Source: Rhodamnia argentea
Taxonomy: Eukaryota > Streptophyta > Magnoliopsida > Myrtales > Myrtaceae
Length of the DNA: 64,000 nucleotides
Assembly (NCBI RefSeq): GCF_020921035.1
Contig: NC_063156.1
Coordinates: forward strand, 26,088,283-26,152,282
Reading direction: 5' to 3'
The notes below the pieces were generated by a model that worked only from the letters and a program-made list of their open reading frames with translations, was not told where the DNA came from and searched no databases. Position 1 is the stretch's first letter; each line of letters opens with the position of its first letter. Below, one piece after another: positions 38,603 through 61,197 of the stretch. A program made the translations under genes and the position numbers.

Positions 38603-41600
38603 TTACTGAACATCATGCAGACATTGTCGAATTGCAGCCCGGAAATCATCAGACTCGATGTCTGATGGTGGGTACAGGTGAAAAACATAAGAGATGGACT
38701 TGGATACCACCATCGGTTTCTTGGTGGGTATACCATCCGACAATTTCCCAAAGCTCTGCTCGTCGAAAGGAAATGACCCGCTGAGAAAGAAGAAGCTGCT
38801 CCTCCCCAGCTTCTCCACCTGGAACAACAATCACGCAGGTGTCAAAACAACATCAAGGGTAAGGACGGATATATACAAAAGATGTCTTGAACACACTATT
38901 TTGAACTATTAGAGCTGCTACTCAAAACCAAGCTGACAAATTTATCAGTGCAGCAACCGATCAGGAAAGAAAAACTCGAGAACGAAAATGAAAATCTAAA
39001 TTATTGGCCATGCATGGAACTAGTATGCTCTCTGCCGAGCACATGCAATTGCCTGAGGAACACAGATTCTTTACAAGATCCTGTGATCAAGCAAACGCAG
39101 CCATAAGAAAACATTATGCCATCTTTTAGCAACAGTAAATTACCTGCAGTTGTGAAAACCTAAGGTTATTCATGGTAAGAATAACCGGCACTTCATATAA
39201 AGCTTCACTAAGTAGCCGAATCGCCAAATACTCGAAGAAGTTCTTCATGAAACTTCTCTGTCCCTCCAAATTTTTTCCATATCCATGAATTTCAAAATCA
39301 GGAAACCACAAGACGCATTTTACTGACTTCCACAGAACTTGGCTCTTCGCAGATTTCCCTATGATGGTCTGGTATGGGTGATGGAGTCCCCACATAATCT
39401 TGACATCAGTCAATGACGGGTCGAATATCGAGGATTCAAGAAGAGATGTGGTGGTGACCATTCTTAAAGGATCATAACTGCGGGCAATGTTGGAGGTATA
39501 ATGAAAGTTGGTGTCATCCAAGATGAGAATTTTCCCATCATCAGCAAAAGGAAATAACTGAATGAGTAATTCTGGGTCAGCATCGCCATTTTCTGGGATG
39601 CATGAACTTGGCTTACTGACTGACGAAAATGATGTGCCCATATCATGAGAGAAGGAACATGAATCACCGTTCCGACAACCCTGCAAATCCAATTACACAA
39701 TCAATTAATGAACTAGTTGCATTTTGTATGGGGGAGCAAAGTAGCAGCAGTGATAAAAACAAGACTTAGGAGCATATGCGGAGAGTTGTGGCATGACTTA
39801 AACATAATCAGCTACAGGTACACTTATTCATGAGCAATCCCACTACCAGCTTTTGAATCTCTTGCTTCAGACAAGAAGCGACCCACTTAGGCTCAGAAGC
39901 GTCTAATCTCTTAGGAGGACTATATGCAAGCAATACCAATTTTTGAACTCTTGCCTGTGACAAGGACCAACCAATTTAAGCTCAGAAGCCTCTACCAATT
40001 TAAGCTTAGAAGCCTCTAATCTCTTAAAAGGAATATACACAAAATCCAGAAATTTATTTTCTTTTTTTCATTTCAACTCCCATGAAGCATCAATAGCATC
40101 CATTTTATAAATACCCAATTAAGGTTTGGTTGTTTTTGCAAAAACTTCTGTTATTACCTTTAGTGCCATAGCCTGTATTTGTTTATACTGTGGCTTCAAA
40201 ATGAGCATTGACAGAGCATGTTCCTAAAGTGCTATAGACCTTCAGACATAAAGTACTCAAAAGGAATGCTCCACATCAGAGTGACTCCTTCAGAAGCTGC
40301 TGAAGAATGAACACCATTTGAAAGTTCCTCATGCACCAGTTTTAGAGTGCTTGCCAAGCATCTAAGAAGAACTGAAGCACTCTGAAAAAACTAAAGCAGG
40401 TGGCAAGCAGTACTCCCAAGCACGCGTGTAATGAGGCAATTTTCAATAGAGGCCTCCAAATGACAGAATCATAACGTTGAAATTCTCAAGAAAAAGAATG
40501 AATTCTCTCACAAATTTCAAGAACCTCAGGAGACAGAAAAGGTGTTATTCGTGGTCTTAGTTTGATTAACTTAATAACATAACTAGATAGGAGGAAACTT
40601 ATTGAAGCATATACCACTGAGCATGGACAACAAAGCAATGGAATCTACTATGCTGACAATTTAGCAGATCAATTCACAATTACATATAGAGGGGTTGTAT
40701 TGTGCTATGGATCAAGACAACCATGCCTTGAAAATGGGGAAGAATCTTAAGTATGTATCATGTGGTTTCTGTGAACAGAGTCTCGTGAATCGTAGTAATG
40801 CGAAAGTCAACTATAAGATATCATGCCACCAACTTGTCAATGTTATCTGCTTTATTTGCTTCAGTCAACCGGTAAAGAATTTTTCAATCACATTCATGAT
40901 AAAGCAAAACATTTCACCAGACATTCACTTGGTAAGTGGTTACAAATGTGAGAATGAAAATTCATATCTGGTTAACACGTGCATGCATATTATATAGAAT
41001 GAAATTAAAGTCGGAGTGAAGTATGAACCTGTAAAGAGAAGAAGAATTTGCACATAGGTTGTTTTGCTTGAAAGGAATGAGAAAATAAGCAATTACTGCC
41101 CCTGTTGCAAGATCCTTTAAGAAAATATATACATATTTCACCCTTGTCAACAGAGAAATCACTCCCAGAAGAACTCTTGGGCTGATCACCGTGGGCCACT
41201 CCAGAGTAATGAGCTCTTATCTATTAAAAAATTGCAGACAAAAGAGACTTAATTCCATAGGTATCTCCAAAAAGGAGCACATAAGAGATGATATTGTACC
41301 TCTTTGACAACAGCTGTCAATTTGTCAGTCACAATTTTTGTCTGGAAGTCATTTGGGGCAACAAACGGCCCAGCAACACATTTCCTGCTGTCGGCAGAAG
41401 AATTAAGTCGTTCGTCATCTAGGCCAGCCGCATCTTCATTTTCATTTGGCAGACCCTCAAGGAGGCACTCGTGTTGGAACTCGTGCGGATAGTAATAAGA
41501 AGGAAAAGAATCAGATGTACTAAGGAAGATGGGCCGAAACCGATGCAATGAACTCAGGACATCTTCATCTGAGGAAAAGCAAACTGAAAATCAAAAGGCT

Positions 41601-44600
41601 GACTAATGGAAGAAAGGGGAAGAGAGGTGACAAGAGAGAACTCAAAGGACAAAGTTGCAGCTGTACATATTTCGGCAACGTGATTAAGTGACGACTGCAC
41701 AAGATTGTGAAAGAAGCACCATTCTTCTTCAGTCTTCAGCACCATCTTCTCTGTAGCTTTCATGTCATCAAATTGTAGAACTTGATTCAAATGCTTAATG
41801 CGATACTTGTCCTTCAGAGAAAAACAACACATAGATATGAGAATGAATACCTGACAGATCTTCAAGAATAAATTATGAGAATACCTTGAAAATGCGCTGC
41901 CAAAACTTAAAGGCACACAAGTTCGCCATTAACATCACCTCCTTTTGACCGACTGGGGGGTTATTAGTATCTCCGCTAAAATAGCAGTCAATGTACTTTC
42001 TGAACTGGAAAGAGAAAGGGAATAGCCAATGAGTGTAATGACTTTTTCTTGTTGATGGATCTAAATAGAAATTTGCATTTGCTTGATAGGAAGTACCAAA
42101 TTTTCCTCCCCAAAAGGATGCACGATGGGTAGAGGTTGTGTATCCATCAATACACCAAGAAGAATGCCCTCATGCAGCAACCCAACTTCACCAAACTTGA
42201 TTATGAGCATAGACGCATCAAAAGACAGAGAGAAGCAGGCAAGCAAACGTCCATAGAATGTTGGCTCAAGCCTCCCTCTAGGAGATGTCTTTAGTGCACC
42301 CATAAGAACTAGCAAATCTAATGCATCTTGAACAACATCAGGATCAGGAGGGTCTAAAGCCTTCTGCAACAACACTGACATTTATTTTTCACGGATCAGC
42401 ATTTCTATTAATCAATACACTGAATATGTGAATGCAGAAAATCATGGAATGAAAAAGGATAATCATGGAAATGTGTCTCGTATATCTTAGAGATCCAGAA
42501 TAGATGCGAGTTCCCTTTTAAGATCATCCAATGCCAATAACAATCAGATACTGATAGATGCAGCAGGACACGTTAGTAACATAGCTTCAGAATAATTTCT
42601 GCATGAACTTTTCCAGTAGTAGTCCTTAGCTAAGCAGAAAAAGGAAAAGATCCAAAGACAATACTTCTTCATTTAGATAAGGATCCTAGCTAAGCAGAAA
42701 AGGAAAAAGATCCAAAGACATAAGGACTCGTGACTCCCCTTTCAGTATCTTCCATATGTGGCATGACTTGCCATTTATATACCTGAAGGTGTGTAAGGTA
42801 CCTATTTCTTGATTAGTCATTTAAAGGGTGACCAAAGGACAGATAAATTCCTCAATGCTTTGTGAATATTGAAAATGAGATGTCTCGAGGTGTTTCTTTA
42901 AGCTGGAGTTTGGCTGCATAGGGTTCCAAAATGGAGGGAGGCTGATCAAAAGGAAAAATTTGGCAAGGCAGAATGCCGTGCCGTGACTAATGTAATTGAT
43001 CTTTTAAAATGCAACACCTAACGGGAACAGAAGCTGTATGGGCAAGTCCACTGGCACAAAAAGGAGGTAAATCGGCTTTGGATTTAAGCGGCAGTGGAGG
43101 GGGAGGCCCTTAATGCTCTAGAAAATCAAGGCTTGCTAAAAGAGAGAGGAAAACAAAGAACTCGTCAGTTTTGATTTTGCCCTCTTCCCTACATATGTTT
43201 ATTTCCCATTCTTTCGCATGATTTCTTACAAATAGGTTGGAGACCCATTTTGCACTTCCAGTTCTAAGAGATGGATGCATCTGGGAAGTTATGTTGAAGG
43301 TAAGGCGAAACAGGAAAAGAGAACATTACAACAGAACACTTACTGTTTTATAGACAGAATGAACATACCTCTGGGATCGTTAATGGCCCTTGATTCAGCA
43401 CAACAGATCAGAAGTACTTGCTGTCGCAGTGATAATCTCAGTATAGTTGGACACTCATACTCCTCTAGATTACTGAAAAATGATCCTGTTACTAATCTAT
43501 AAATCTCTCCATCACAGGTCCGACCCGTTCTTCCTCTCCGTTGTTCAGCCTGCATAAAACTTTGAATTTCATGAACTTCACATAGAAACTGAGACAAAGT
43601 TGCTGAGCTTGATATGATACCTGAGATTTGGATACCCACATGAGCTCTGAGTGTTCACTTTTCCTATTACCATCCCAGTAAACTTGCAATGACCGACATG
43701 AATCAATTATAAAAGCTACTTTTGGAATTGTCACTGATGACTCCGCAATGTTTGTAGCTAATATTATCTGGTCAAAAAGAACTTTCAAAGTCACAAGGAA
43801 CTCAAAACATATAATATTTTCTCTGACTGGCCAAAGAAAAGAGATCCAACTTATTCATAATCTATATTATTAAGGAAAAGTCATATTTGTCTCCCTTATT
43901 TGGCATTCCAATATAACCCTTCCTACTACCCCCACTATTTCATCAGGTAACCACCCACTTTATACATGTCTGATAACTATCAATTATCACTATATCCACC
44001 CCACCAGATAATCACTTAATTCCTCTCAATACTTTTTTCTTTGTTAATAACCTCCCACTCTCGTGCACACATTTCAACACTAATAATGGCATAAGAAAAC
44101 GTACAGTCCCACAGCAAATGCTATAACGGTCTCATACTAAATTCACACTGATACACACACATAAGTTCGTAACCTAACAAAAGCGGAGACAAGCTAATCC
44201 ATTGCCTTCATGAAGAGAAAATGCCTAAAAGATCTGCACCCGTGCAATGATATCAGTAGGGTAAGCAAGATCCTTGGCTTCCGTTTTCTGCATCAGTCCA
44301 TTGACATATGTGTTGCTGAAGATTCCCAAGTCAATATAAGCAAAGTTACCATCTAAAATCTATTGATACAGTTTTCCATTGCGATAGCATTTCAAAAGTA
44401 CATAATTGCCATGTTTTATTGCTTTCTCAAATACTTCTGCAAATTAAGAGAACTCCAATTCCAAAACATGATAATTTTATTTGAGCTTCCCAAAAGTGCA
44501 TCTTACCTTACGGTGGGACTTCCAGATCTTCATTGCCAGCAAAGCTTGTTCTGTGTCTATACTACTATGTAAAATATGAACTTTGAACAATGGACTTAAG

Positions 44601-47600
44601 GACTTCAAAAGGCGCCATTGCTCCTCCAGTGAACGGTACGTTGGCAAAAAAATCATTATGCTCTTCTCAATGTCGGGCTCATTTTCATGGATATGCATTA
44701 CCAAATCATGAATGAGTTTGTGAACTTCAGGCTTGATATTTGCATGGGCTGTTGAAGGGCTTTCCCCATTGCAATATTTCACTGATGATGACTCCGAACT
44801 AATTCCGAGCAATTTGGTTACCTGTTCAGTAAAATCTAATAAATCCATCATTCCTCCCAAGCTAAATTTGTAAAAACCTTAAACATACTTATTTCTTTAT
44901 GAGAAACATAATAATTAATCTTTCCATAGAGAAAAGACAACTGTCAGGAATTATCATGCCTCCCAAGGTCACCCTTGGTTCTATCATCACTCGATATTTA
45001 CCATCCTTATTACAATTGGCGGACATATTTGGAAGGCCCCTTGCTCATAATGTCTTTACGCATTTTAGATACAAACTCAGTCTTTGGACTATCCCAATGA
45101 CAAGTTTGATGGGGAGTGTTGATCCACACATTCAACCTCAGGCTAAACCAAGCCAAATTCGGAAGATTTCAATTAACATCGCGCATGACAGATTTGATGC
45201 TGAGTTGTTTTTACTTTTATTGGATTCTGTAATTAAGATGTTTCACTTGCCTTTTAGATTTTTGTTCATTAAAAGAATCATGGGACCATTATTTCTCTTG
45301 TATACATATGAACCTCTACCAATGAAATGGTATAAAAAGGGATTTGTATATACTCTCATCTTCATTTGTCTTTAATAACTTCCCCATCATTCACCATCAC
45401 TTTTCCAACCGATCACTGCTACCACGATGACCTCTCCTGCGTTCCCTCCTGTAGTAACTGCAGCCTAGACTTAATAAGAATCCACATCCCCGTCTCAATT
45501 CAGACCGCAACATCCATACTAACTTTCAATCTCCCGACCTATCCCCATCCAAATCAAAATCCTCTAGGTACACCAGCCGATGATTGTGCCGAACCATTGG
45601 AGCATGCTCACATGTCTAGAGTTCATTCTAAATCTTCATCAATGAGGCAATTGCTTCCATTGTTGTCATTAGTTGTTACTAGACATGCCTCCGCTCTCAG
45701 GGATTTTGTCAACCAACTGACATAGTAGAAATGGCAGAAATGCAGATAAATCAATCCTTAGAAAACGCCCCAGGAGCAACACTCTCACAAGCACAAATCC
45801 AGGGAAAAATCTCATAATTCTTTCATTAATTTAAAAAAATAAGCTGCTTTGCAACAAAATAAAAGCACATGTTTATATAGTACTAAACTAGAAAAAAAGA
45901 AAACACAATGTCGGAAAGTATTGTTAGTAATAAGGGTTTTACACACACACACACATGCATATGATTTTTGAATAATAGAAAGTGATAATCTCTTCAACAT
46001 GATATCGGTAGGGGTGAGCATGGTCTGGATTAGTTTGGTTCCCTCAAGAACCAGAGGCCGGACCAGTAGTCCCGGTATTTCTAGAACCGGGGATCGGACC
46101 AAAGGTCTCTGGAACAAATAAAATGAGGAAAAAAAAAGTAAAGGGAAATTTAACTTGTTTGATAAATGGTAAAAACTCAAAGAGAGGATAGATGAAGTGC
46201 TCACTCTTTGTCCAGGGCAAGACTTTTGTGGTCACTAACCATGATAAGAAATTGTCGCATCCTCTATTGAGAGGAACTTCGCATTGTGTAAAAGGGTATT
46301 GCATTTCGTCTAAGAGTCTAGGGGAACTAGTATAGAACTATTTGTGGTCAAGGTTCGTTTTGATTGCTTGGCATGCTCTGTTTAATAACAAAGTTGAGGT
46401 AAGAGCTTGCAGTATGTCATTGGAAGTTCGTGTGTTTTTTGGCAAGGACTCTGTTGTGGTTGATCAAGGTGTTAGCGTTGTCATTTCACGAGAGCACCAG
46501 TATGTGATTGAGACGTTATTTGGTAAACTCACCATGAAAATATTGAGGACAGTGGGACAGGAAGATATAGTCACAGCTAATCTTCAAAAATTGGAGGCTG
46601 CAAGCAGGACCGTGCTGTCAGATCTCGGGGCAGCTGCTTTTCCGAGGGATGGTGGGAGTGTAACTGGGAGGGGAGAGCTTTAGAGAAGTTCCCTAGCAGA
46701 AAGCACCAAGTTCTCTAGAGTAGGGTTTGGAAAGAGTGATCAGGGGGATGACAGTAGATCACTTATAGGAGCTGAAAACTAAGAACATGGTCAGAATTAA
46801 GTTGTACATTTAAAAATAAAAATAAAAATTCAAAATTTGTCAGTCCGGGTGGGCGGTCCATTGGTCCAATTCCCCTAGAACCGGGAATCGGACCGACCGA
46901 ACACCGGTTCCATCTTGAGGAACCGGAGACCAAATCGGTGACTTCTAAAACCAGACCAAACCCGTCTGTGCGGTCCGTCCGGGCGGTTCCCGATCCAATC
47001 GGTCCAACTTGCTCACTCTTAGATATCAGAGCCTAATTCCTAATCCCTTGAGGTCACCGGAAAACCACTGTTCGGGCTGCCAACAGCAAAACCCTAGCCT
47101 ACAATTCCGGTGACTCACTCGCTACCGCTGACTCTCTCATCACCAGCAAACTGCTCGACCCTCGCCTCTCCTCTCCATCTCACCCCAGCTAGTCCACCCA
47201 ACTCACTTTGCCCCAGCCCCTCGCCAGCCTGCTTACACCTCACCATCACATCTCTACTGCTCGTATCTCACCACTGTAGCTCAAATCCAGCATCACCAGG
47301 CCGTGATAGTGCCAAGAACGACGTCGCAAAACAAGTCAACGCTAAATCCACTGCCGCCCAATGTTGCCCAGTCTTGTTGAGCTCAAATCTAGCGACGTTC
47401 AGCCAAGACCTGACGTTGAAACCCACTGTTCTTCACCCAAGAAGTTGATGTGTCTTTGTTCTATGCTGATTTTGTTTGTGGTCAACCTCATTATCTCTGT
47501 GTGTGGAGTTGCATTGGATCGAAGGAAATATTGGGAATAAGGTTGCTGATTTTTCGATGATTCATACCTTTACTTACTAATAGATGGTATCTACAGACCT

Positions 47601-50600
47601 CTCTAACGGAATTCTTGGGGAACCAAATGCCTTTCCATTATATTGTTACGGCGTTGTATACCAATTTAATGATATTGCTAAGTCTCGGGAACTGCTGAGA
47701 CTAGTGGTGGTCGGATTGAATCCTATTTTCTTTTCGAAACTACTTGTGTGATTAATTGGATTTTTGGATTTAATTTTGGGGGGGGGGCCGCGGCTCAATC
47801 ACATTCTCTATTCACCGATGGCGGGATCAACTTCTAGAATCTCTTTTGCTCACTTTCAATTAACCTCTGTCAAGTTGGATGGAACTACTTATACGTCCTG
47901 GTCTAAAGCCGTCGAGGTCTATCTTATGGCTACCAAGCAACTTGACTATCTAACGTCTACGGTACCGGCAACTTGATTATCCAAAGTCTATGGTACCATC
48001 TAACAAGGATAAAGTTGTTGATTGGATTGCGGGAGATGCGATGATTCGGACTCTTTTATGGAATAGCATGGACCCTAAGGTCAGTCCTCACTTTATTCAA
48101 GTATGACTCGCTAAGGCATTTTGGGAGAAATGCGCATTGCTCTGTTATGGGCATAATAATATAACACGGGTATGTGGCACGTGTGAAGCCTTATTTGATA
48201 TTCGGCACAGAGATCAATCTTTATCTGATAATTATGCTTGGTTCATGACCTTTTGCCAACAATTGGATACTTATCTTCTCACCTCGAATGATCCAATTGT
48301 TTTGGCCAAATGCCAAGAGGAGTTGCAGTGGTATCATATCTCAAGTCAATGAGGCCTCAGTATTCATCTCGTCGACAATATACTATAGTAGAAATTCTAA
48401 TAAGAGTTCCCTTTTACACATAATTATCAATAAAGAATATATAGAAGGGAGATAGAACATCCCAGCAAGAGCCGAAAGGCATCCTAAAGGAATGGTAGCA
48501 CCATGATCCACCCACGCGGCCACCTCTCATCCCGAGCTTCTTTGAAAGTGCTTTCTTTTGAGTGAAGGCAGCATAAGTGCATTGGTCACATAGGCTTGAT
48601 TCCTGGAGGTCTGGAGAAAGCTGCAATGAGATAAGCGCTACGCTTTCCCATGGTCTTAGTGGACATAGAGGTCGAGGTTGAGGTTACCAATGTCATGGAT
48701 GCGGTTTTTTCCATAGTGGAGGTCGTTTTGCAGGGTTAGTACTTGTGGAGCCATTAGTTATGGGAATTGTCGTGGCTCACGCTATAGCCATCATTGTCAA
48801 AGAGCCAAACATACAAAAGCTTATTGTTATACTCTTCGCCCACAGCTTAAACTAACACTTGTTGCCCATGCAGAAATTGAGAATTCTGTTGTTCCTCCCT
48901 CACTGGTTCCACAAAGTTCGAGTACTATGCAAAATACAAACAATCCCGTTACATTGACACATGTTGATTATCATACATTGGTACGCTCTGAACAAATAAA
49001 AGGATCTTCAGCTCCTACTGCAACTTCTGCACAAACCTCCAAAGGTAGTTCATCTTGCTTGTTTCCTACAGCATCTGACTCCTGGATTATTGACTCTGGA
49101 GCTACCAATCACATGATTGGTAACTCTAATCTACCGTCTTCATTTCATTCTACATCTCCTTCATTGTCAAACTCAGCTACAATAGCGAATAGCTCACAAT
49201 CTCAAGTAACTGGTACAAGAGTTGCTCATTTGAGTCTCTCTCTTTCTTTATCATCTATCCTTCACCTATCAAAATCTCCTTATAATTTGATTTTTAGCTC
49301 ATTAACAAATTGAATTGTTTTGTAACCTTTTCCTATCCCCGCTATGTCTTTCAAGATCTAAGGACTGGGTAGATGATTGGTTTGGTTTTTTTTTTTTTGG
49401 GGGGGGAACATGAATAAATAAAATGGCTTGTACTATCTTCACAAGAAGGTATTAGCTACCGCAGCTGTGAAGCGTACATCCACCGAAGTATATCGGATGC
49501 ATTCTCATGCTTGTCACCCGCCACCGAACAAACTTCGGTGACTATTTCCTAAGTGTGTCAATTCCTTCCAAGCTTGTCGGTTTGGTAAATATCATAGAGC
49601 CTCTTTTCCTTCCCGCATTCAAAACCATGTGTTTAGTCCATTTGAGCGGGTTCACTCATATGTATCCAAATAAGTATCGGAGATTAGTTGGTAAGTTAAA
49701 CCATCTTACCATCACAAAACCTAATATATCTTTTGCTATTAGCGTAGTAAGCCATTCCATGAGCAAGACCCGATATACCCCTACCCCATGCTTCGAATCG
49801 CCAAATATTCGAAGGGAGCACAAAGTAAAGGACTAATGTTTAAGAATTACGGTCATCTAAACACTATAAGCTTCTATGATGCTGATTGGGTTGGATGTAT
49901 GTCATATGGATAGGATATCTACTTCAGGCTATTGTGTGTTTCTCGTGTGATAACCCGAAAACCCTCACCAGCTTAAGAGTGAATTAATATTTGCAGATTG
50001 TTATCCGAACTCAATGGTGTTTTTAAGGAATTACTATTGGCCCAATAATATTTTTTAGGGGCACTAAGTATTTAACTAGGGTCCTATCGGGTCAAATATA
50101 TGCGAAATTGGGACAACCGGAGACGGGGAACAGCACGTGGCTGCACGTTGGGGCCCACATGTCACCGCCACAAGACACGTGCCAAAGGCGGTGCCACGTG
50201 TCCCCGTAAGGCGACCCGTGTCACGCCGTGGTGCTTCGGGCACCGACTCGCCCAAGCCGACCGATCTTCACTCTGCTTCCCTATATAAACTTCTGACGTC
50301 GGTTCATTTCGTTGTACGATCGTCAAAACACGTTACTTTGCCATTATCCATACCCGTCCGCCGCCATCCTCTCTCTCGGCCGTGCATCCTCACCGTTGTG
50401 GTCGCGCTGCCACCGTGCCGACGCATTGCCGTCCACCGATGCCATGTCGCCGTGCCGAAGTCATCAAGTCGGCTTAAGGAAGGTAAACTCAAGATCATTC
50501 GTTTGTCGTTTCTACTTCCGTTTTCTTCGAATTCATAACTAAGGCAAGTAGATCTCTAGTCCTTATTACTAGGCTGTTTATGGTTTTCCATTGTGAACAT

Positions 50601-53600
50601 TGTTTGCCAATCTGTTTAGCTATGATGACTTCAATTTGGATGATTCCGAGGTTCTGAAATTCTATCTTTTGAGTTCCTTGGATTTTGGTTTGATTATGAG
50701 ATTCTATTCCAGTTGGATTCTGAATTTGATTATGAGATTCTATCCTTTATGTACCTTGGATTCCATCGTGGTGACTCTGTTTGCAATCTTGTGATTCTAT
50801 AGCCAATTTAGTCATTTGGCCTAGTGATTTCCTTGCGAAGCCTTGAGCTCACCCACGTTGATTAACGCCTTTTTTAAATAAGCAAGCTAGCGAGGATAAA
50901 GCCGGTGTGATGTTATCCTCGATTGATGGAGGCCGTGAATAGTTTTGATACTCGGGAGTAGATTATCTTCTTTTGTAAATCCTCCTAGGTTAATCCATTT
51001 GACTAAAGAAGTTATGTAAATGGCTTAGACCATATGTGAATATGAAGTATACTTCCCGAACAATCTTGTTGCTAGAGATGTACGTTATTTGGTTAGTGAA
51101 AACCATGAAAAGCCATACCCTTTTCTTTATAAGCGTGCCTGCCGGTGGGTGTTTAGTGGTTTATCATACACTTGTGCTGTATGGCCGCCCTATCGAATTT
51201 TCTATTTAAGCTTCCGCATGCGCCATAGTATAATGAAAGATTAAAGCAAAAAGAGTGTGAGTTTGGTAAGCCTTAAGGTGTGGCAGACTAGGACTCTACA
51301 TCTCAAAAGTAATTTAGTTGCGCGGAGAGCAAGAAACAACATGTAGTTACCTGATCAAGCGCTTTAGCTGAATATCGAGCTACGGTACATGTGATAATTG
51401 AATTACTATGGTTGAGGATGTTACTATCGGAGATTGGAACGTCACCGTTGAATCCATCAGTGTTATATTGTGATAATCAATTTGCTATTCATATTGTATT
51501 TAATCCTGTCTTCCATGAGCGAACTAAGCATATAAAGGTTGATTGCCATTGTCCGAGAAAAAGTTCAAAAAGGGGGTATTATTCTTCAACACACAAAGAC
51601 AGAGGATTAACTCGCAAACATCTTTACCAAGTCTCTACAAGGAAATAGAGTGAGCTTCTTATGTAACAAGTTGGGACTATTTGATATTTACATCCCAACT
51701 TGAGGGAGTGTGCTGGAAAGTATTGTTAGTAATAAGGTAGAATAGTAATAAGGGTTTGATATATATTCTGACCCTATTCTGATTTTTGAATAATAGAAAG
51801 TGATAAGCTCTTCAATATACATGAGTGTTAGAGGAAAAAAGAAGCAAATGATATTATTCAGTAAAGTAGTATTTATACATTTTATTTTATTTTATTTTAT
51901 TTTTTATGATCGAGGTTCCGCGCGGCCGGCGAGCTTCGCTCAACACGGCGGTGGAGTACGACTAGTCCTCGGGAGGGGCTAGCGCGAGAGCCCACCACCA
52001 CGACCCTCCACTTAAGACACCGGCGCCGAGGAGTTTTGAACCTCGGACCTCTCGTGAAAGGAACTAAACTCAAACCAACTCGGCCACCTATGGGTGGGTG
52101 TAGTATTTATACATTGGTAACCAAATAAACCCAAAAGACCAGTTATCATGCCCAACTTGTTACAAATATATTATATCCTCCCGTTACCCAAAGGTTTAGC
52201 AAAAATGTCTGCAAGTTGTTCACCGGTTCTAACATGACTAGGAAGAATCATTCCACTATGTAACTTCTCTCGAATAAAATGACAATCAACCTCAATATGT
52301 TTGGTTCTCTCATAAAACACGGGGTCGGAAGCTATATATGCATTGCAGCCTTATTATCACACCATAAAGGCATAGGAACCGAAGCTCTCAAGCCTAACTC
52401 GGTCAATAGCCGCTGAATCCACACTAATTCACATGTAGCTTGTGACATGGCTCTATATTCTGACTCAAGACTGAAATAGGCAACAACTCTCTGTTTCTTA
52501 CTCTTCCACGACACCGGATTTCCTCCGACAAATGCACAATAGCCTGTAGTAAATCTCCTATCATCCGAAGACCCCGCCCAATCAGCATCGGAAAGTCCTT
52601 CAACTCTACTATGACCACGATTTTGGTAAACAATTCATTTTCCTGGAGTCATCTTCAAGTATCTTAAAATTAGAATTACCGCATCCCAGTGAGAGGTACG
52701 AGGAGAAGACAAAAACCGGCTTACCACACTAACCGGAAAGGCAATGTCCGGTCGAGTAATTGTGAGATAATTCAGTTTGCCTACCAATCTTTTATATCTC
52801 TCGGGATTATTGAATAGCTGTCCTCCCTCCGCAACCAATTTAACTCCTTGTTCCATGGGTGAATCAAGGGTAAAGTGATCTTTTGGATTTATTTGGTTAC
52901 CAATGTATAAATACTACTTTCTTGAATAATATCATTAGCTTCTTTTTTCCTCTAATATGATATCAGAACCAGGTTGAAACCCTAAAACCTAAAACTAGCC
53001 GTTTACCACCGTTCACCACCAAACACCGCCACCAACCACTACTTAATCACCGTCGACCACCCACCGCTTACTCACCTTCGACCATCGACCCTCTTCCCGC
53101 CACCGCCAAAGACGACCACCAATCCCCTTCTCTCCGGAATCCCCGGATCTAGCGTCGCCGGGCCCCACGAGCTCGGACCCAGGCTAGCCCAAATCCAGCA
53201 ACCCTTGCAAGGGTGTCGCTTAGGCCAACAAGCCTAGTTCTAGCATCACCTGACGTCGACTAGGCCCGGCAAGGCCGGATTCAACATCTACGAGACCCGG
53301 CGAGCCTTGTAGGGACGTTGCTCGGCGTTGCTTAGGCTGGAGAGTCAAATCTCGCGTCGCCCATCGTCGGTGAGCCTTGTAGGGACGTCGTCTAGCATCA
53401 TGGAGGTGTCGTCCATCGTCAGCGAGCCCGGATCCGGCACTCTGCCCTCGGTTTTGACCATACAACCCCCACAACCCCTCTATTGCTTGGCTATGGCTCC
53501 ATAGGTTTGATTTTTTGGTGAATTGATGGTCATTACAGCCCTCTGTTGCTCTATTATAGCTCTACGGGTTCATTTTTGTGGATTGATGGTTATTGAGTTT

Positions 53601-56600
53601 CAAAGCCGGAGCATTGAAGTGTTAGCTTGTTGATTAGGCTTGATGATTATGTGGGTAGCTCTTAATTAGAGATATTGATCTATTTGTGGAACACTTCTGA
53701 CTTTTTGGAGCTGACATGAAGCTGGTTAGGTGAATTTTGGAGTTGATTATTTAGGATTTTGGTAGATTATTAAACTATTAAGGATGGGCGATCCTGATAA
53801 GAGTAAAGTTAAGGGTAGTTCTGAGACGAATAATGTTGTGATGATCGAGGTGATTTCGTCCTCGTCTAATCAAATCACCGATAAGAAACTCGAGGGTGGT
53901 ACAAACTTTCATCGGTGGAAGAAAATTATGAAGCTTACTTTGACGGGCGGGAATAAATATAGACACTTAAGCGAGACTAAGCCCACAAATGATGAGACTT
54001 GGGATGTTATTGATGCACATATTCTAGGTCGGATGTTAAAACTCTATGGAGAGTAATATAGTTGATTTAGTAACTCATATTGATATAGTTAAAGAAGCGT
54101 GGGAGTATTTGGATGTATTGTATTCGGGCCAAAATAACCTCTCACAAACATATGAGTTATCATAGGAATTTTACCGATCCGAGAGGAAGAGGCGTTCTAT
54201 CATGCAGTACTTGGCTGATTTTAAGAGAATGTATCAATGATGTTCTCCCTATTTCAGCCAATGTTCAGCAAATGCAACTTCAGATAGAACAATTGATCGT
54301 AATGGGATTTCTAGGAGGTCTTAGCCCCGAATATGAAACTGTCAGGTCTCAAATTCTTGGAGGAGAGATTGTTGCATCACTCACGGATACGTTTGCTCGG
54401 GTTCTTCAAGTATCTTGTGAGTCTTCTCGAGATTCCACATCTGTGGTAGATAATTTAGCTCTTGTGTCACGCTCTCAAACCGGTAGTGGAATTAGGAGTG
54501 ATGGAGGATAGAATGAACGTGGTGGCCGAGGGGGAGGCCGAGGCACGGGAACAGGGAGAAGCCAATGCCAACCGCATCTTTATGGACAACCTCAACCGTC
54601 TACCGATAACTCGGGGGCAGCCCGAACTTGTCATTATTGTGGCAAATCAAGTCATATTCAGAAGTTTTGCTACAAGTTACATGGGAGACCAGGGCAGCAA
54701 CAACAATTTGCAAATATAGCATCTGGTGCTAATTCTTTTCCACGGTCTTCTGAGGGCAAGGTAGTAGTTATGTCCGAAGAGGAGTTTGCACAGTACAATC
54801 AGTCTCAAAGTTCAAAGCCTACTTCTTCCACTGCTACTTTAGTACGGATAGGTAATGCTACTGCGTGTGTTTCAGTTGCTTCTCGTCCTTGGATCATTGA
54901 TTCAGGGGCTTCTAATCATATGTCGGGTCTTTCGGGTATATTTTCCTCTCTTACTCCATCTTCATCCACAGTTACATTAGCCAATGGTTCATCTACTCGG
55001 GTTGAAGGAGTTGGCACAGTTCATCCAACTCCTTCATTGCCTTTCCCCTCGGTGCTTTATCTTCCACAATTTCCGTTTAATCTCAACTAATATTCCTTAT
55101 TTTCTTATTTCAACTAATATTCTACCTATGCATAAAGAAATAAAAGTAAAATCCCACTCACACTCTAATTAGAAAATATCAGCCATTAGGGTAATAAACG
55201 ACACCAAATATTGCCTTGACGGACTCCCACGTAACGATTTCAAGAGTAAAAGGCAAACTTTATGAGTATTCTCCGACACTTACAATCAGAAGTTAGAACA
55301 GCCACAGCTGCAAAATCGATCCTAGGTAGCTTCTTGAAAATCTGCTTTTAAATCGTTTCAACATCCTCTTGCTTCTGCTTTTAGAAGTCTGCTGCTTGTG
55401 ACTTTCTGAAAGCAGGAGCAAGAACTCCCGTATTGCCCTATGGGCATTATGCTTCGCCAGTAAGACTGCCACAGGAACTATTTACTACTAAGGCCAACAT
55501 GAATTTTTGTTCATTTGTTCACTAATACACAGTGATATCAGGGAGTAATTCATATCGCAAGTATTAAAAAATGAGATTAGGAACCGGGTTGTAATGCCAA
55601 AAGTTCAATGATCCCAGCAAAGTCAATAACTGTTCAAGCATTTGATAAGTGCAAAAACATGGGTGGCTCAAATAAATGAAGAGGCAATAGGAGATTCAAG
55701 GTGTTACCAATAAAATAATAGTCAATCTAAATACTAAAAGCAAAAGGTAAATTCTTTAGTTAAAAAGCAAAAAGTACACCAACACACCTTGAGATTCAAG
55801 AATGCCAAATGATCAACCATTGAGCAGGTACTCTTTAAATTAATGCTGCAAATTTAGGCCTATATGGTGAATAACCAAGCTTTTACCTGCTCAAGATATA
55901 ACACTCTTTTTTGATAAATGATTTGATTGTTGGAGTTAGGAATGGCAAGCACATCTACTCTTTCATCCCTAGCAATATCTCCAAAGTAGTCCCTGTATCT
56001 TGCAGTATCAGCTGTTGCAGACATTAATACCACCCTGCAAAATCCCAAACAGCAACTAAGTTTCTAAGGCCACAAAGCAACCAATATCCATGAAAGATCA
56101 CATCAAAGAACAGTTTCCTGTATACATCGCAAGTGCAATTTATTCTTTCCACTTGGTTATTCAATCAATGCAATGTAAGTTATTTTATCCGTATGGCTAT
56201 TCAATCAAATGCATCCACATCCTATTTGAACTAGTATTTGATAGAAGCTTGATACTGATAAACTGCCTGCTGTCATTCTTGTTTTCACAAAAGATCCAGA
56301 GTACTAAAAATCCTGAAGATAAAGAAAAACAATTCCAGCACATCATAACCGCAAACTCGCCCAAATATCACCAGCAATTATTATGGATCAAACTATTTGG
56401 AAAAGCTTCTACCACACCATCATTTTGTGCAGACTGAACCATAAACTTCGAATGACATCAAATAAAAGGAAATGCACAGAAGTCCAATGAAAAATTGATA
56501 ACCTGACCTGAGGTTCTTGTTCTTCAGGAGAAACTGCTTCACGCAGACAAGAAGGAGATCGGACTCTACAGATCTCTCATGCACTTCATCTAGTATGATA

Positions 56601-59281
56601 GCCTTGTAATCAAGCGCATTCCCACCTTTCTCACGTATCTCCTCCAACAAAACTCCTGCAGTTTTGAAAGCAATCTTTGAACTGTAAAAGAAGACAGATA
56701 GAAAGGTATAAGGACTTTAGTTTAAGATAGACACAACATAAATGCCTAAGGCACTTCCATATAATGAATCAATGTAAAATTAGCATGAGCCACTGAAAAA
56801 AAGAAAAATGTCTTAACCAATATATACATTGAGCATAAGTCAATGGAAGTGACTCTTGCACTTACATGTTTGACCATTTAAGAGAGTGTTTTACTTTCTT
56901 GAACATGCATTAAAAACATAGATACGACAGAAAAACTATTATCATATGAACTCAAAAGATAAAATGATCTAACATCACATTTGTGAGGAAAAAGGTCAAT
57001 TACAATGTCAAATGTGGACCTATTTGTCCAACTTTGTACTTCAATTAAAGACTTTCCCTTTATAATTTTGAAAAAGAAAATAAATTGTTAATTTTTGGAA
57101 CTTGTGAAAAAATTTTACAGGATTCTACATTTCGATATTTGGATATTTTGACATGTTTCGAGAGTTTCACATTAACTAAAAGTTCAGACCCCACAACTAC
57201 TTTACATGCAACAGCTTGATGAATACCATAGTACATTCTGCATGCTGTAACTATTTATCAGTTATGCAGATGTTGAAGCCACCATGCTCATGGACATCCT
57301 CACTACTTAAGACGATCATAAAATTTGGAAACTCTTTACACTACAAGAAATTGACGGGTAAAGAGTTCATATTTCTGTAATGGTCTGCCTGAATATGTTG
57401 GAACAATTTAGCATAAAGGACTGTCAACCTGTGTTATCATTATCAATTAGCTCACTGAAGATTAGCTCAAAGTAACAGAGGAGAGAAAGAAGGCAAATAT
57501 TAAAAACCTGCAGACAGAAATAAAGGACCGTAGAAATTTAAACAATAGATGACAGGTAGTGCCAGCCAACAGCAAAGGAAGCCCAACGAAAAAGACAGAC
57601 ATCAAACATCATGGACCGTCTAAGTCTTGCTATTAAGGAAATGGTGAAGATATACACACATTTCTTTCAGTTAATTTTTTTTCCGGTGTGTGGGGGGTGG
57701 GGGGAGAAAGAGAGAGGCATTGCATCACTACCTGGATGATATATTCTTTAAATGACCAATGTGATATCCAACTTCCCCTCCCAACTCACAATTACGGGCT
57801 TTTGCAACCATTTTTGCCACAGCTACCGCTGCAAATCTGCGAGGTTGTGTACATACTACGGGATAGATGTTCCTCTCTAGCAGAAACTGGGGCACTTGAG
57901 AGCTCTTCCCTGAATGTTCAGAATATAAAATCAGATCGAAGCCAAGCAGAAAACTGTGGAGGACTAGCAAAAGCAGGTCGTAGCATCATTCAGATGCAGA
58001 GAAGTCGATAACACAGGTTCCAATGAAATTCGATTGCCAATCCACATTTGTAACTTCAGGCCAAATACAAGTATAATCATCCCAGTATTGAATTACACAG
58101 GTAATTGGCTTACAAACAACATTCAGTCAATAGAAACTTGTGATGATACAGATCTTAAACCCCCCATCTTCAGTTTCAGTCGAAAGCTTCCTTTAAACTG
58201 AAGGAAAATCAAATATGCGACTAGAAAAACCAAACTATTTGGATCCTGAATAATCTTTTTCAGTCCTCATAAAAGCTAGATAATAAAAGACTCTATTCAG
58301 CTTTAGTATAATAAAATGATGATAATAATAAGAATGATAGCAGTAGCAGCTATACCATTAACAATAAAAATAAACCGTTCACTTCCAGGCATCAAGCCAT
58401 ATCCCCATTTTCCAGATGTGACTTAAGAAGATCGCAAAATTTCAGCTTCCTTCTCCTAAAAGTTTTAGCAATCGGAATAAATAAAATGCATGGTCTACAA
58501 GGTTTACCAGCTAAAATGAGCTCATATCTGCTCCAATTTTCCATTCGATAATCAAAATAACAAGATCAAGAATTCTTTAGACAGACTTTCCCTTTCCATG
58601 CAACGGCGCTATTGCAGAGATCAACTAAGATACAGAGTACTAGATTTTCAGTCATTTTAACAAAATAAAAACGTTGACGCAATCACATTCCCACAGTTTT
58701 GTGAGCTTCGGTACGTGCTGCATCAGACCAAATAATACAGAGCTACACCAAAGTGACCTCTTCATAATTCATGAAGTCTCAGGTTCTTCGGTTCAGCTTC
58801 CAAAGCAGCAAAACACCATGAAAAACGAGTGCAAAGTCCTCGAACTAGCGATGAAAGGAGAGGCAACGTGCTGGATAATCGCAAACCAAAAAGCTAGCGA
58901 GAATAAAGAATCGTATGCGCTCGATTCGCATCACACGAGTTCTAAAGCTTCTAAAAAAGGAGAAATGAAGCACTTCTTCGCCAGAAATCTCCCAATGACG
59001 ACCCCGATCATCCAAAATCGCAGCGCCAAATTCAGCGTCTTAACCCATCGTTCACACCTCAAACTTAATGCAACCACAATGCAATGCAGCAGAGGACTCT
59101 ACAGAGAGAGAGTACCGCATCCGGTTTCGCCGATGATGAGTGTGACGCGATTCTCGAGGATCTTCTCGACGATTTTCTCCCGTAGGGCCAGGATGGGGAG
59201 GGGAGGGAACCTGGAGGACGAAGAAAACTGAGACGAGTACGAGGAGCTACACGACGACGTCGGAGAAGAAGGCCCCGCCAT
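38603..59281 (-). CDS. C3H31: DEVH-box RNA helicase with tandem CCCH zinc fingers (zinc finger CCCH protein 31 type)
   Basis: Predicted ATP-dependent RNA helicase coupled to RNA-binding CCCH fingers. Fourteen exons: 59281-59116, 57909-57732, 56681-56508, 56034-55887, 44821-44507, 43767-43621, 43549-43369, 42374-42097, 42004-41885, 41811-41667, 41568-41300, 41220-41029, 39680-39144, 38818-38603. They total 1021 aa, near the Arabidopsis protein. Walker A GETGCGKSSQ is at residues 51-60, DEVH at 146-149, SAT at 178-180, motif V (ATNIAESS) at 331-338 and motif VI QRRGRTGR at 379-386. The fingers are C737-x7-C745-x5-C751-x3-H755 and C764-x8-C773-x5-C779-x3-H783, the latter split by an intron. All phases agree across the 11-kb intron 4, which is filled with transposons, so the gene may still be functional. 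Confidence 0.9.
42621..42720. repeat. Tandem duplication, 60-bp period
   Basis: About 34 bp (CTAGCTAAGCAGAAAAGG..GATCCAAAGACA) occurs at 42626-42660 and again at 42686-42720, inside the intron between exons 7 and 8 of C3H31. Confidence 0.75.
45909..45999 (+). repeat. 5' LTR of copia A
   Basis: Starts TGTCGG and ends CAACA, directly before the primer-binding site sequence TGATATC. It is shorter than the right copy because the segment with TAGAATAGTAATAAGG is replaced by a CA-dinucleotide run. Confidence 0.75.
46009..47021. mobile_element. hAT-like non-autonomous DNA transposon inside copia A
   Basis: Imperfect terminal inverted repeats TAGGGGTGAGCA (46009-46020) and TGCTCACTCTTA (47010-47021) match at 10 of 12 positions. 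They are flanked by 8-bp duplications GATATCGG (46001-46008) and GATATCAG (47022-47029), 7 of 8 identical. Termini starting TAGGG and 8-bp duplications are hAT hallmarks. Both ends carry inverted subterminal GGACCGG/ACCGG-rich repeats. A 113-codon open frame (46342-46683) has no recognisable transposase signature. Confidence 0.78.
48360..48640. other. Unassigned segment interrupting the gag region of copia A
   Basis: Between the gag end (about 48350) and the zinc-knuckle region (about 48660) lies roughly 280 bp that does not read as gag in any frame. It may be another small insertion. I could not define ends or a target duplication. Confidence 0.3.
49946..51300. mobile_element. Solo LTR (1355 bp) inserted in the RNase H region of copia A
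   Basis: Begins TGTGATAACC and ends GGACTCTACA (TG..CA). It is flanked by TCTCG (49941-49945) and TCTCA (51301-51305), a 5-bp target duplication with one mismatch. It has no coding frame, but contains TATATAAA at 50282-50289, a plausible LTR promoter. The RNase H frame of copia A is collinear on both sides once one duplication copy is removed, confirming insertion into the element. The family is unknown; the length would suit a gypsy-type LTR. Confidence 0.78.
51711..51821 (+). repeat. 3' LTR of copia A
   Basis: Starts TGCTGGAAAG after the polypurine tract and ends ATATACA. It is directly adjacent to the LTR of the minus-strand element B with no intervening host sequence. Confidence 0.75.
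51822..52875 (-). mobile_element. Truncated copia B: 3' half only (RT end, RNase H, LTR)
   Basis: Reading on the minus strand, coding remnants run from about 52870 (DSPMEQGVKL, then RYKRLVGKLNYLTITRPDIAF) through RNase H (SWKSKKQRVVAYFSLESEYR at about 52512, WCDNKAAMHI) to about 52170. The LTR follows at 52148-51822 (TGATAACTGG..AACACTCA), itself split by a SINE. Without the SINE and one duplication the LTR is only about 93 bp. Gag, protease and integrase are absent. Confidence 0.78.
51881..52100 (-). mobile_element. tRNA-derived SINE with perfect 14-bp target duplication
   Basis: On the minus strand the body begins CACCCACCCATAGG. It carries an A-box-like TGGCCGAGTTGG and a B-box-like AGGTTCAAAACTCC with tRNA-like spacing, and ends in a (TAAAA)n tail. 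Perfect 14-bp flanks TAGTATTTATACAT lie at 51867-51880 and 52101-52114. It is inserted in the LTR of copia B. The tail and long duplication are marks of LINE-type target-primed insertion. The perfect duplication suggests it is fairly young. Confidence 0.88.
52876..55130 (+). mobile_element. Truncated copia C: 5' half only (LTR, gag, protease)
   Basis: The LTR (about 52876-52957) matches that of copia B (TTTATTTGGTTACCAATGTA, CTTCTTTTTTCCTCTAA), followed by a primer-binding site TGATATCAGAACC at 52958-52970. A 5' leader of CACC-rich sequence leads to gag from 53784 (LEGGTNFHRWKKIMKL). Several frameshifts follow. A CCHC zinc knuckle (CHYCGKSSHIQKFC) is at 54629-54670, and protease WIIDSGASNHMSG at 54890-54928. 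Coding ends near 55090 and nothing of pol or a 3' LTR follows. Confidence 0.8.
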
Positions 59282-61197
59282 TGTCGAAGCCCTCCGAGCA
59301 CTTCTTCTCTCTCTGTGTTCCGATCGCGAAGGAATCGCTCGCGGTCGCTGCTAGCGAGTGGAAATGAAGTCGAAGCAAAAGCGGGCTCGCTTTTCCCTTT
59401 TTCCACAAAAGTTCATGAGGGCGGAAGGTGGTCGCTCCCGCGCAGTCGCGGATCCCCTGCTCGGTGGCGTATTGGGAACTACACGTGTCGGCCTATGGAT
59501 GGGTTCTGGGGAGGACCTTTGTCTTTGACTTCGAGTGTCGTCGGTTGACTTGCTCCCGGAGAATGGCCTAACGCTGGTCGCGGGGGCACGCGATCAAGCG
59601 CCGGTTACCTTCTCCCCCAAGGTCGCTAGAAAATGTGGGTCCCGACATATTCCCTGGGTCTTCGCTTGACGTGGAAAGAACATTGATCATGATTGGACTA
59701 GAGACGACTCGGCACGAGATCAACGGTCACGATGTCCCCGGACTAGACGGATGACTCCACGTAAAGGAGCGGACGTCCTCGGCGTCACCCCACGTCGCGG
59801 GCTAGTGCTCACCCCACCCCCAACCCCAATCTTTTGTATTTTTTCTGTTTTCCTTTCAAAAAATTCGAAAATAGATCTTTTATGATTTAGAACATTTATC
59901 GGGTGATTCCATGATAATCTTTTAGACATGTTATCTCATATATCACTTAAATAAATCAAAAATCGAATCCATCATAATATTACCTTTTTTTTTATCGAAT
60001 TTGATTAGAAGTTAACACGTTATCATTCTAATAACTTTTGCTTTAGCCATGAATACACGTTTTCTTTTTTGAGTCGAATGTGGATACAAGTTGAAATGCT
60101 AAAATGTTATTTTTTGCTTTTTATAACCAACCTTGAGCATTGTCCCACAAGTTAGACAAACGTTTCTTTCATAATTTAATAGATTAATATCATGAAAAAT
60201 CCTAAATTAGTACATTTATGACAAATTTACGTCAAACTATTTTTTTTACCACAAAAAACTTAAAATCGGTACATCTATGACAAATTTACCCTAAATTATT
60301 TTTTTGACCACCAAAAATCCTAAATCGATATATATGTGACAAATTTACTCTAAATTAATTCTTTTGACCGTGAAATACCCTAAATTGATATACCTGTGAC
60401 AAATTAACCTTCTATTAAATTGAGTTAATATTACGAAAAATCACAAATTGATAAACATGTGATAAAGAGAGAGTAAAAACCCCGAGCTAGTATACTCATT
60501 AAGCGCCACGTATCACAAACTTAGTAATTTGAAAGTTAAATTTAACGAAAACTAACGGAGGGTAAATTTGTCACAAGTGTATCAATTTGAGATAAATTTG
60601 TTATAAATATACCAATATGGGATTTTTTATGGTCAAAAAAATAATTCAAGGTAATTTGTCATAAATGTACCAGTTTGAGACTTTCCGTGGTATTAACCCT
60701 AATTTAATTTAAGGACAGTTTGCTTAGTATTTAGCAAAAGAAAATATCCCTTAAATGCTATTGATTTACATGTGAAATTTTTATAAGGAATTCAATGGAA
60801 TTTATGTACCAACACGCACATTTTCTGAAAGTTTCAGATAAATTAGATAAACAAAAGTCAAAATGAGAATGCTGCAAGGTTTGAATTTAAAAAAACAAAA
60901 ATTAAAACTCAATCCAAACTTGCCTTCCGATACCAGAAAGAACTGACTGCAAGACAGCTGAAAGAAGATCAACATCCAAAACTTTAGCATCAGGACATAT
61001 TAAATTGAATAAAGGTATAAAAGTGCCACGAGACAGAATGACTCGAAAGATGACCAACGCGCATCGCTCCTCCAATGATTAAAACCACGGCCATGTACAT
61101 ATAAAAAAGGAAATGCCATTCATTTTGGAACACAAAAGTTTCATAATTGCCTGCCCACGCATTTCCATCACAGCTTAAATTGCTCACGGCAAAGCCA
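59282..61197. other. Intergenic region C3H31-SWI3A
   Basis: The C3H31 promoter and leader (left, GC-richer) and the SWI3A 3' flank (right), separated by AT-rich DNA that carries the Mutator-like MITE described separately. No gene is recognised. Confidence 0.6.
60181..60699. mobile_element. Mutator-like MITE with subrepeat TIRs and 9-bp target duplication
   Basis: Flanked by TAATTTAAT at 60172-60180 and 60700-60708 (perfect 9 bp). The ends AGATTAATATCATGAAAAAT and (reverse complement) GGGTTAATACCACGGAAAGT are inverted repeats. The left arm contains about four tandem copies of a ~60-bp unit (CTAAAT..GGTACAT..ATGACAAATTTACCCTAAAT..TTTTTTGACCA). The right arm contains about three copies in inverse orientation. 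There is no coding capacity. A 9-bp duplication is characteristic of the Mutator superfamily. Confidence 0.8.

What the first reader, a model, noticed from the sequence alone, without database searches (positions are those of the whole stretch)
44822..55886. About 9 kb of nested transposons carried in one intron of an apparently intact helicase gene
All 14 coding exons of the CCCH helicase remain in phase, yet intron 4 is 11 kb and holds at least six insertions: copia A, hAT-like element, solo LTR, copia B, SINE and copia C. The host gene must splice across promoters and polyadenylation signals of several elements. Such introns in plants are often kept spliceable by heterochromatin-dependent factors (the IBM2/EDM2 pathway). 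This makes the locus a candidate for methylation-dependent isoforms.
Basis: partly seen in the sequence, partly recalled or inferred. Interest (0 to 1): 0.72.

Follow-up and report, generated by a model that had tools for sequence, protein, structure and literature searches.

The report
Helicase gene with transposon-filled intron
A plant RNA-helicase gene that looks intact carries one very long intron filled with old, broken transposons; this is a clear example of a situation already well described in plants, not a new kind of thing.

Summary
A minus-strand DExH/CCCH helicase gene reads as 14 coding exons in phase (1021 aa, 13 of 13 introns GT-AG). Intron 4 is 44822-55886 (11,065 bp), of which about 9.2 kb (45909-55085) is transposon. 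A search of its 347-Mb genome found no second close copy.

The inventory needs correcting. Copia A holds a hAT-type element (8-bp target duplication, one mismatch) and a solo LTR (5-bp, one mismatch). A SINE sits in its LTR (perfect 15-bp duplication). A further copia-like remnant, read by eye, lies at 44936-45908.

The elements are decayed and mostly antisense to the gene. AATAAA is not enriched on the gene's strand (7, expected 8.0; 4 of them in the SINE tail) but is on the other (16, expected 6.0; 6 of these outside the mapped elements). Transcripts, heterochromatin and IBM2/EDM2 control could not be tested. Known kind; low to moderate interest.

The parts
38603..59281 (-). DExH/CCCH helicase gene, ATG to stop, 14 coding exons, 1021 aa
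55887..56034 (-). Exon 4
44822..55886 (-). Intron 4, 11,065 bp, GT-AG
44507..44821 (-). Exon 5
44936..45908 (+). Copia-like remnant(s), boundaries approximate, recognised by eye only
   Evidence: no Pfam match for two ORFs there
45909..51818 (+). Copia A, incomplete, antisense to the gene; short LTRs at about 45909-46000 and 51711-51818
   Evidence: LTR pair, gag domain, protease-region domain
46009..47021 (.). hAT-type non-autonomous element in the primer-binding site of copia A; TSD 46001-46008 / 47022-47029
49946..51300 (+). Solo LTR inside copia A; TSD 49941-49945 / 51301-51305
51826..52868 (-). Copia B: RT/RNase H and 3' LTR half of the probable single B+C element, gene-sense
   Evidence: 91.4% over 724 bp to a relative of C
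51866..52114 (-). tRNA-derived SINE with its two 15-bp target duplications (51866-51880, 52100-52114), gene-sense
   Evidence: A and B boxes, TSD
51881..51901 (-). Four AATAAA in the SINE tail; candidate poly(A) signal in gene sense
52863..55085 (+). Copia C: 5' LTR (first ~12 nt missing), gag and protease half of the probable single B+C element, antisense
55086..55886 (-). Remaining intron sequence next to exon 4, unassigned
   Evidence: homology to kin of C stops at 55085 (6 of 7 fetched loci) or 55053 (1 of 7)

Best explanation
This is one intact helicase gene, apparently without a close duplicate, whose fourth intron has grown by a series of old, partly nested transposon insertions that have since decayed. 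Its pre-mRNA is most likely transcribed through the whole block and spliced from 55887 to 44821. It can do so because the elements are broken and mostly antisense, so the gene's strand carries few canonical poly(A) signals. The likeliest weak point on that strand is the A-rich SINE tail at 51881-51901; stopping there without splicing would give a 230-residue protein, the first helicase lobe plus VKAWLFTI. Shown: gene anatomy, phase, lack of a second close copy in the search, target duplications, hexamer counts. Inferred: splicing across the block, the SINE tail as risk site, and that chromatin marks, if present, would act by hiding that site.
For: Gene model in phase; DEAD, Helicase_C and CCCH domains above cut-offs; one unbroken local alignment to Spindle-E over residues 21-525, E 8e-65, with no gap at the exon 4/5 junction; 14 of 36 genome matches are this gene's own pieces at 77-98% identity, the other 22 are at 29-52% (45 of 54 candidates scored); target duplications; B and C in one family; AATAAA at shuffled level on the gene's strand; T-rich stretch (10-11 of 15) after the SINE-tail AATAAA; unspliced exon 4 stops after VKAWLFTI.
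Against: No transcript was seen. Only 6 of the 60 solved-structure matches listed cross the junction in one stretch; the other 54 align in two, leaving the linker unaligned, so a small loss there is not strictly excluded. The hexamer comparison is one locus: 6 of the 16 antisense AATAAA lie outside 45909-55085, and 2 lie in copia B, which is gene-sense. TGTA[ACT] was below expectation on both strands (30 against 35.5, 26 against 36.1). No TGTA or TTGT was found in the 80 bases upstream of any of the 7 gene-sense AATAAA, the SINE tail included, which speaks against the SINE tail as a good plant poly(A) site. The rice study found no strong orientation bias of intragenic elements (PMC7145194).
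Confidence: 0.75

Rival explanations
1. One reading: the intron is heterochromatic and the gene depends on an IBM2/EDM2-type pathway; loss of marks gives truncated isoforms.
For: Such introns are common and regulated this way in rice and Arabidopsis (PMC7145194; PMC10241880). About 9.2 kb of transposon in one intron. Candidate poly(A) signal in the SINE tail.
Against: No methylation or RNA data. CpG content is unremarkable. About half of transposon-containing introns in rice do not overlap heterochromatic introns (980 of 1,967; PMC7145194). Elements are decayed and mostly antisense.
Confidence: 0.35
2. The gene is split: the block stops transcription, so exons 1-4 and 5-14 are separate transcription units or a decaying gene.
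For: 11-kb block with one gene-sense AATAAA cluster; no RNA evidence either way.
Against: Whole frame open over 14 exons with all splice sites kept, although copia A has LTRs that differ at 12 of 89 aligned bases, so the block is not new. No second close copy was found to take over.
Confidence: 0.08
3. Assembly join inside the repeat.
For: Nested repeats are hard to assemble.
Against: No N in the window; position inside a long contig; three elements with both target duplications in place.
Confidence: 0.03
4. Copia B and copia C are two separate insertions.
For: They lie in opposite orientations; the shared LTR letters could mark a subfamily; neither half's partner LTR is left to prove one element.
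Against: Same family; the two LTRs share four differences from four kin LTRs, which come from three elements (read by eye); the parts are complementary (5' part in C, 3' part in B) and the junction joins mid-RT to the 5' LTR start.
Confidence: 0.25

Closest known systems
Plant genes with transposon-bearing or heterochromatic introns (e.g. Arabidopsis RPP7, IBM1, AT3G05410; 4,227 rice gene models)
   Same: Functional gene with a long intron holding transposon or other inserted sequence
   Different: Chromatin state and transcripts are unknown here. RPP7 and AT3G05410 hold elements of about 5 kb, the one in AT3G05410 with an intact frame (PMC4417168, passage); here the elements are decayed and partly nested
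Arabidopsis At2g47680-type CCCH zinc-finger DExH helicase (likeness recalled, not tested)
   Same: Helicase core plus CCCH fingers
   Different: No plant orthologue was at hand to compare intron length; nearest solved chain by sequence is Spindle-E
Short-LTR Ty1/copia elements, hAT-type non-autonomous elements, tRNA-derived SINEs
   Same: Copia gag/protease domains; TIRs with 8-bp duplication; A and B boxes, A-rich tail and duplication
   Different: Degraded copies; the hAT-type element carries a 553-bp segment that matched two other loci in the search

Membership tests
Heterochromatic intron under IBM2/EDM2-type control | Transposon or repeat inside an intron of a gene with open frame | tested here: met
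Heterochromatic intron under IBM2/EDM2-type control | CHG methylation / H3K9me2 over the intron | not testable with these tools
   No methylation data; CpG content inconclusive
Heterochromatic intron under IBM2/EDM2-type control | Premature intronic polyadenylation when the factor or the marks are lost | not testable with these tools
   Only a candidate site in the SINE tail
CCCH-type DExH RNA helicase | DEAD and Helicase_C domains plus CCCH fingers in one frame | tested here: met
   All above Pfam cut-offs
Ty1/copia (copia A) | Copia gag/protease-region domains and paired LTRs | tested here: met
   Retrotran_gag_3 and Pol_BBD above cut-offs; LTR pair
Ty1/copia (B+C) | Copia domains and paired LTRs | tested here: met
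   Pol_BBD in C above cut-off, gag of C only below cut-off (E 0.015 and 0.024), no Pfam hit in B; LTRs of B and C and one family by kin
Ty1/copia (remnant 44936-45908) | Copia domains | tested here: inconclusive
   No Pfam match for two ORFs; by eye only
hAT superfamily | 8-bp target duplication and short TIRs | tested here: met
   Duplication 7 of 8, TIR 10 of 12
hAT superfamily | hAT transposase (autonomous members) | tested here: inconclusive
   Only its longest ORF was scanned, no Pfam hit; at most a non-autonomous member
Solo LTR | Single LTR flanked by target duplication, with LTR pairs elsewhere | tested here: met
   Duplication 4 of 5; paired copies in 3 of 3 fetched regions
tRNA-derived SINE | A and B boxes, A-rich tail, target duplication | tested here: met
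   (B box by a loose pattern); no Rfam tRNA match; copy number not obtained

The most novel reading that the evidence does not exclude
The intron acts as a regulated switch: the SINE tail, lying in gene sense inside a rearranged copia, is a poly(A) site that yields a 230-residue first-lobe-only helicase fragment when the block loses methylation, giving a chromatin-sensitive short or silent form of a helicase that has no close duplicate.
Probability: 0.05. Interest if true: 0.5.

Novelty: new member of a known kind. Interest (0 to 1): 0.22.

Why it matters
It is a well-delimited test case: one gene without a close duplicate found, one intron, an ordered stack of insertions and one named candidate poly(A) site. 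It does not change what is known: rice alone has 4,227 gene models with heterochromatic introns (PMC7145194).

Tried and rejected
Two genes, or coding sequence lost in the intron: judged unlikely from phase, domains and the Spindle-E alignment. CpG depletion as a methylation footprint: inconclusive. Rfam over the intron: 3 matches, all far below gathering scores. Pfam for the RT/RNase H pieces: no hits, so kin DNA was used for B. Paper search for long introns with nested LTR elements: 2 papers, neither about plants by title. Search for At2g47680: 3 papers, none opened. Never answered: genome searches for the SINE, for the 44936-45908 remnant (76, 105, 107, 111) and for copia B alone (101). Copia A kin were not searched. 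Species: contigs numbered C1-C11 among the hits and a 347-Mb genome made me think of Myrtaceae (recalled); not tested, and one search was seen as a listing only. How unusual an 11-kb intron is in this genome was not measured.

Papers: PMC7145194, abstract, part 1 of 3 of the results, and section 10. PMC10241880, abstract, section 12 and passages. PMC4417168, abstract, part 1 of 2 of the results, and one passage. All others: listings only.

Full report
What was checked. The window lies inside a plant contig (C7:26088283-26152282 of a 346.7-Mb, 74-contig assembly). I built the minus-strand gene from its splice junctions: 14 coding exons from 59281 to 38603, 3066 nt in frame, a single stop at the end, 13 of 13 introns GT-AG. 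The protein has DEAD, Helicase_C and CCCH domains above Pfam cut-offs. Its best match among solved chains is Spindle-E (E 8e-65); that alignment covers residues 21-525 in one stretch and has no gap at the exon 4/5 junction (residues 222/223). Of the 60 matches listed (78 in all), 6 cross the junction in one stretch and 54 align in two, leaving the linker unaligned. So no helicase domain is missing, but a small loss in the linker is not strictly excluded. In the whole genome 36 matches were reported (45 of 54 candidates scored): 14 are this gene's own pieces (77-98% identity), and the other 22 are 29-52% identical, presumably other helicases.

The intron. Intron 4 is 44822-55886, 11,065 bp; the next longest of this gene's introns is 1,348 bp. 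The stretch 45909-55085 (9,177 bp, 83%) is assigned to transposons.

Copia A (45909-51818, plus strand, antisense to the gene) keeps two short LTRs (77 of 89 aligned bases identical, plus gaps), a gag domain and a protease-region domain; its frames are broken and much of pol is missing (by eye). It has no clear target duplication. In its primer-binding site sits a hAT-type element, 46009-47021, with TIRs matching at 10 of 12 and an 8-bp duplication matching at 7. Its 45 other matches in the genome are 71-87% identical (40 of 121 candidates scored). In the RNase H region of A sits a solo LTR, 49946-51300, with a 5-bp duplication matching at 4. The best near-full-length relative is 69% identical; shorter pieces reach 86%, and one of 37 bases 92% (74 other matches, 40 of 208 candidates scored). 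In 3 of 3 regions fetched, such LTRs come in pairs 2.5-3.2 kb apart.

Copia B and C. The stretch 51826-52868 (minus) carries RT/RNase H-like sequence and a 3' LTR. The stretch 52863-55085 (plus) carries a 5' LTR, gag and protease region. One relative of C on contig C5 matches C at 86% and, in its 3' part, matches B at 91.4% over 724 bp, so B and C belong to one family with LTRs of about 100 bp (by eye). The two window LTRs share four differences from four kin LTRs, which come from three elements (by eye), and differ from each other at 6 of 81 aligned bases. C's LTR lacks its first ~12 nt and is fused to the middle of B's RT region. One inversion of the 5' part of a single element, then a deletion ending at 55085, explains this in fewer steps than two insertions. 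This is inference; two members of a subfamily remain possible. In 6 of 7 fetched kin loci homology runs to 55085 and in one to 55053.

SINE and remnant. Inside the B LTR lies a tRNA-derived SINE on the minus strand, with an A box, a loosely matched B box and a perfect 15-bp duplication (51866-51880, 52100-52114). Between exon 5 and copia A, 44936-45908 contains copia-like peptides that I recognise only by eye; Pfam finds nothing.

Age. Jukes-Cantor distances worked out by hand are about 0.15 (A) and 0.08 (B+C, if one element). At the often-used 1.3e-8 per site per year (recalled) that is about 6 and 3 million years, and longer if this plant evolves slowly. With 89 and 81 aligned bases the errors are large.

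How it probably works. A gene-sense transcript meets only the poly(A) signals of its own strand. AATAAA occurs 7 times there (60 shuffles: 8.0 +- 2.8) and 16 times on the other strand (6.0 +- 2.1). Four of the seven are the SINE tail, followed by a T-rich stretch. Against this: 6 of the 16 antisense AATAAA lie outside 45909-55085 and 2 in the gene-sense copia B, so the excess does not come from antisense elements alone; TGTA[ACT] is below expectation on both strands; and no TGTA/TTGT lies within 80 bases upstream of any of the 7 gene-sense AATAAA. The likely reading is that the gene tolerates the block because the elements are broken and mostly face the other way, with the SINE tail as the main, but not strong, risk. 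Without splicing, exon 4 runs to a stop after VKAWLFTI: a 230-residue protein with the first helicase lobe only.

Comparison with what is known. About 11% of rice gene models (4,227 of 37,866) carry heterochromatic introns; of 454 genes changed in OsIBM2 lines 93 carry such introns, with premature polyadenylation in the intron (PMC7145194). A curated Arabidopsis set has 241 intragenic elements in 214 genes (PMC4417168). In Arabidopsis, IBM2/EDM2 are thought to suppress proximal poly(A) use rather than to help splicing (PMC10241880). The present locus fits this class by anatomy; its epigenetic features could not be tested, and CpG content does not help.

Verdict. Real, correctly located and correctly read as a gene with an intact frame; ordinary in kind; one structural correction (B+C) and one weakening of the mechanism (decayed, mostly antisense elements).

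Noticed in passing
46233-46785: The middle 553 bp of the hAT-type element resemble two other loci (C10:23.90 Mb, C5:14.54 Mb; about 74-75%) with no hAT-end match in the fetched flanks, while copies on C6 and C9 have only about 120 bp there: perhaps a captured segment.
   Followed up: partly
44237-44320: Intron 5 holds an exon-like stretch on the minus strand coding TYVNGLMQKTEAKDLAYPTDIIAR; no match among solved structures.
   Followed up: partly
60184-60696: Diverged repeats of about 114 bp (76-79% alike) between the helicase and its upstream neighbour.
   Followed up: no
61198-61542: Upstream neighbour has a SWIRM-associated region match (E 2.6e-5, below the curated cut-off), perhaps a SWI3-type gene.
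   Followed up: no
45725-45895: An LTR-like stretch with a TATA-like motif on the gene's strand, read by eye only.
   Followed up: no
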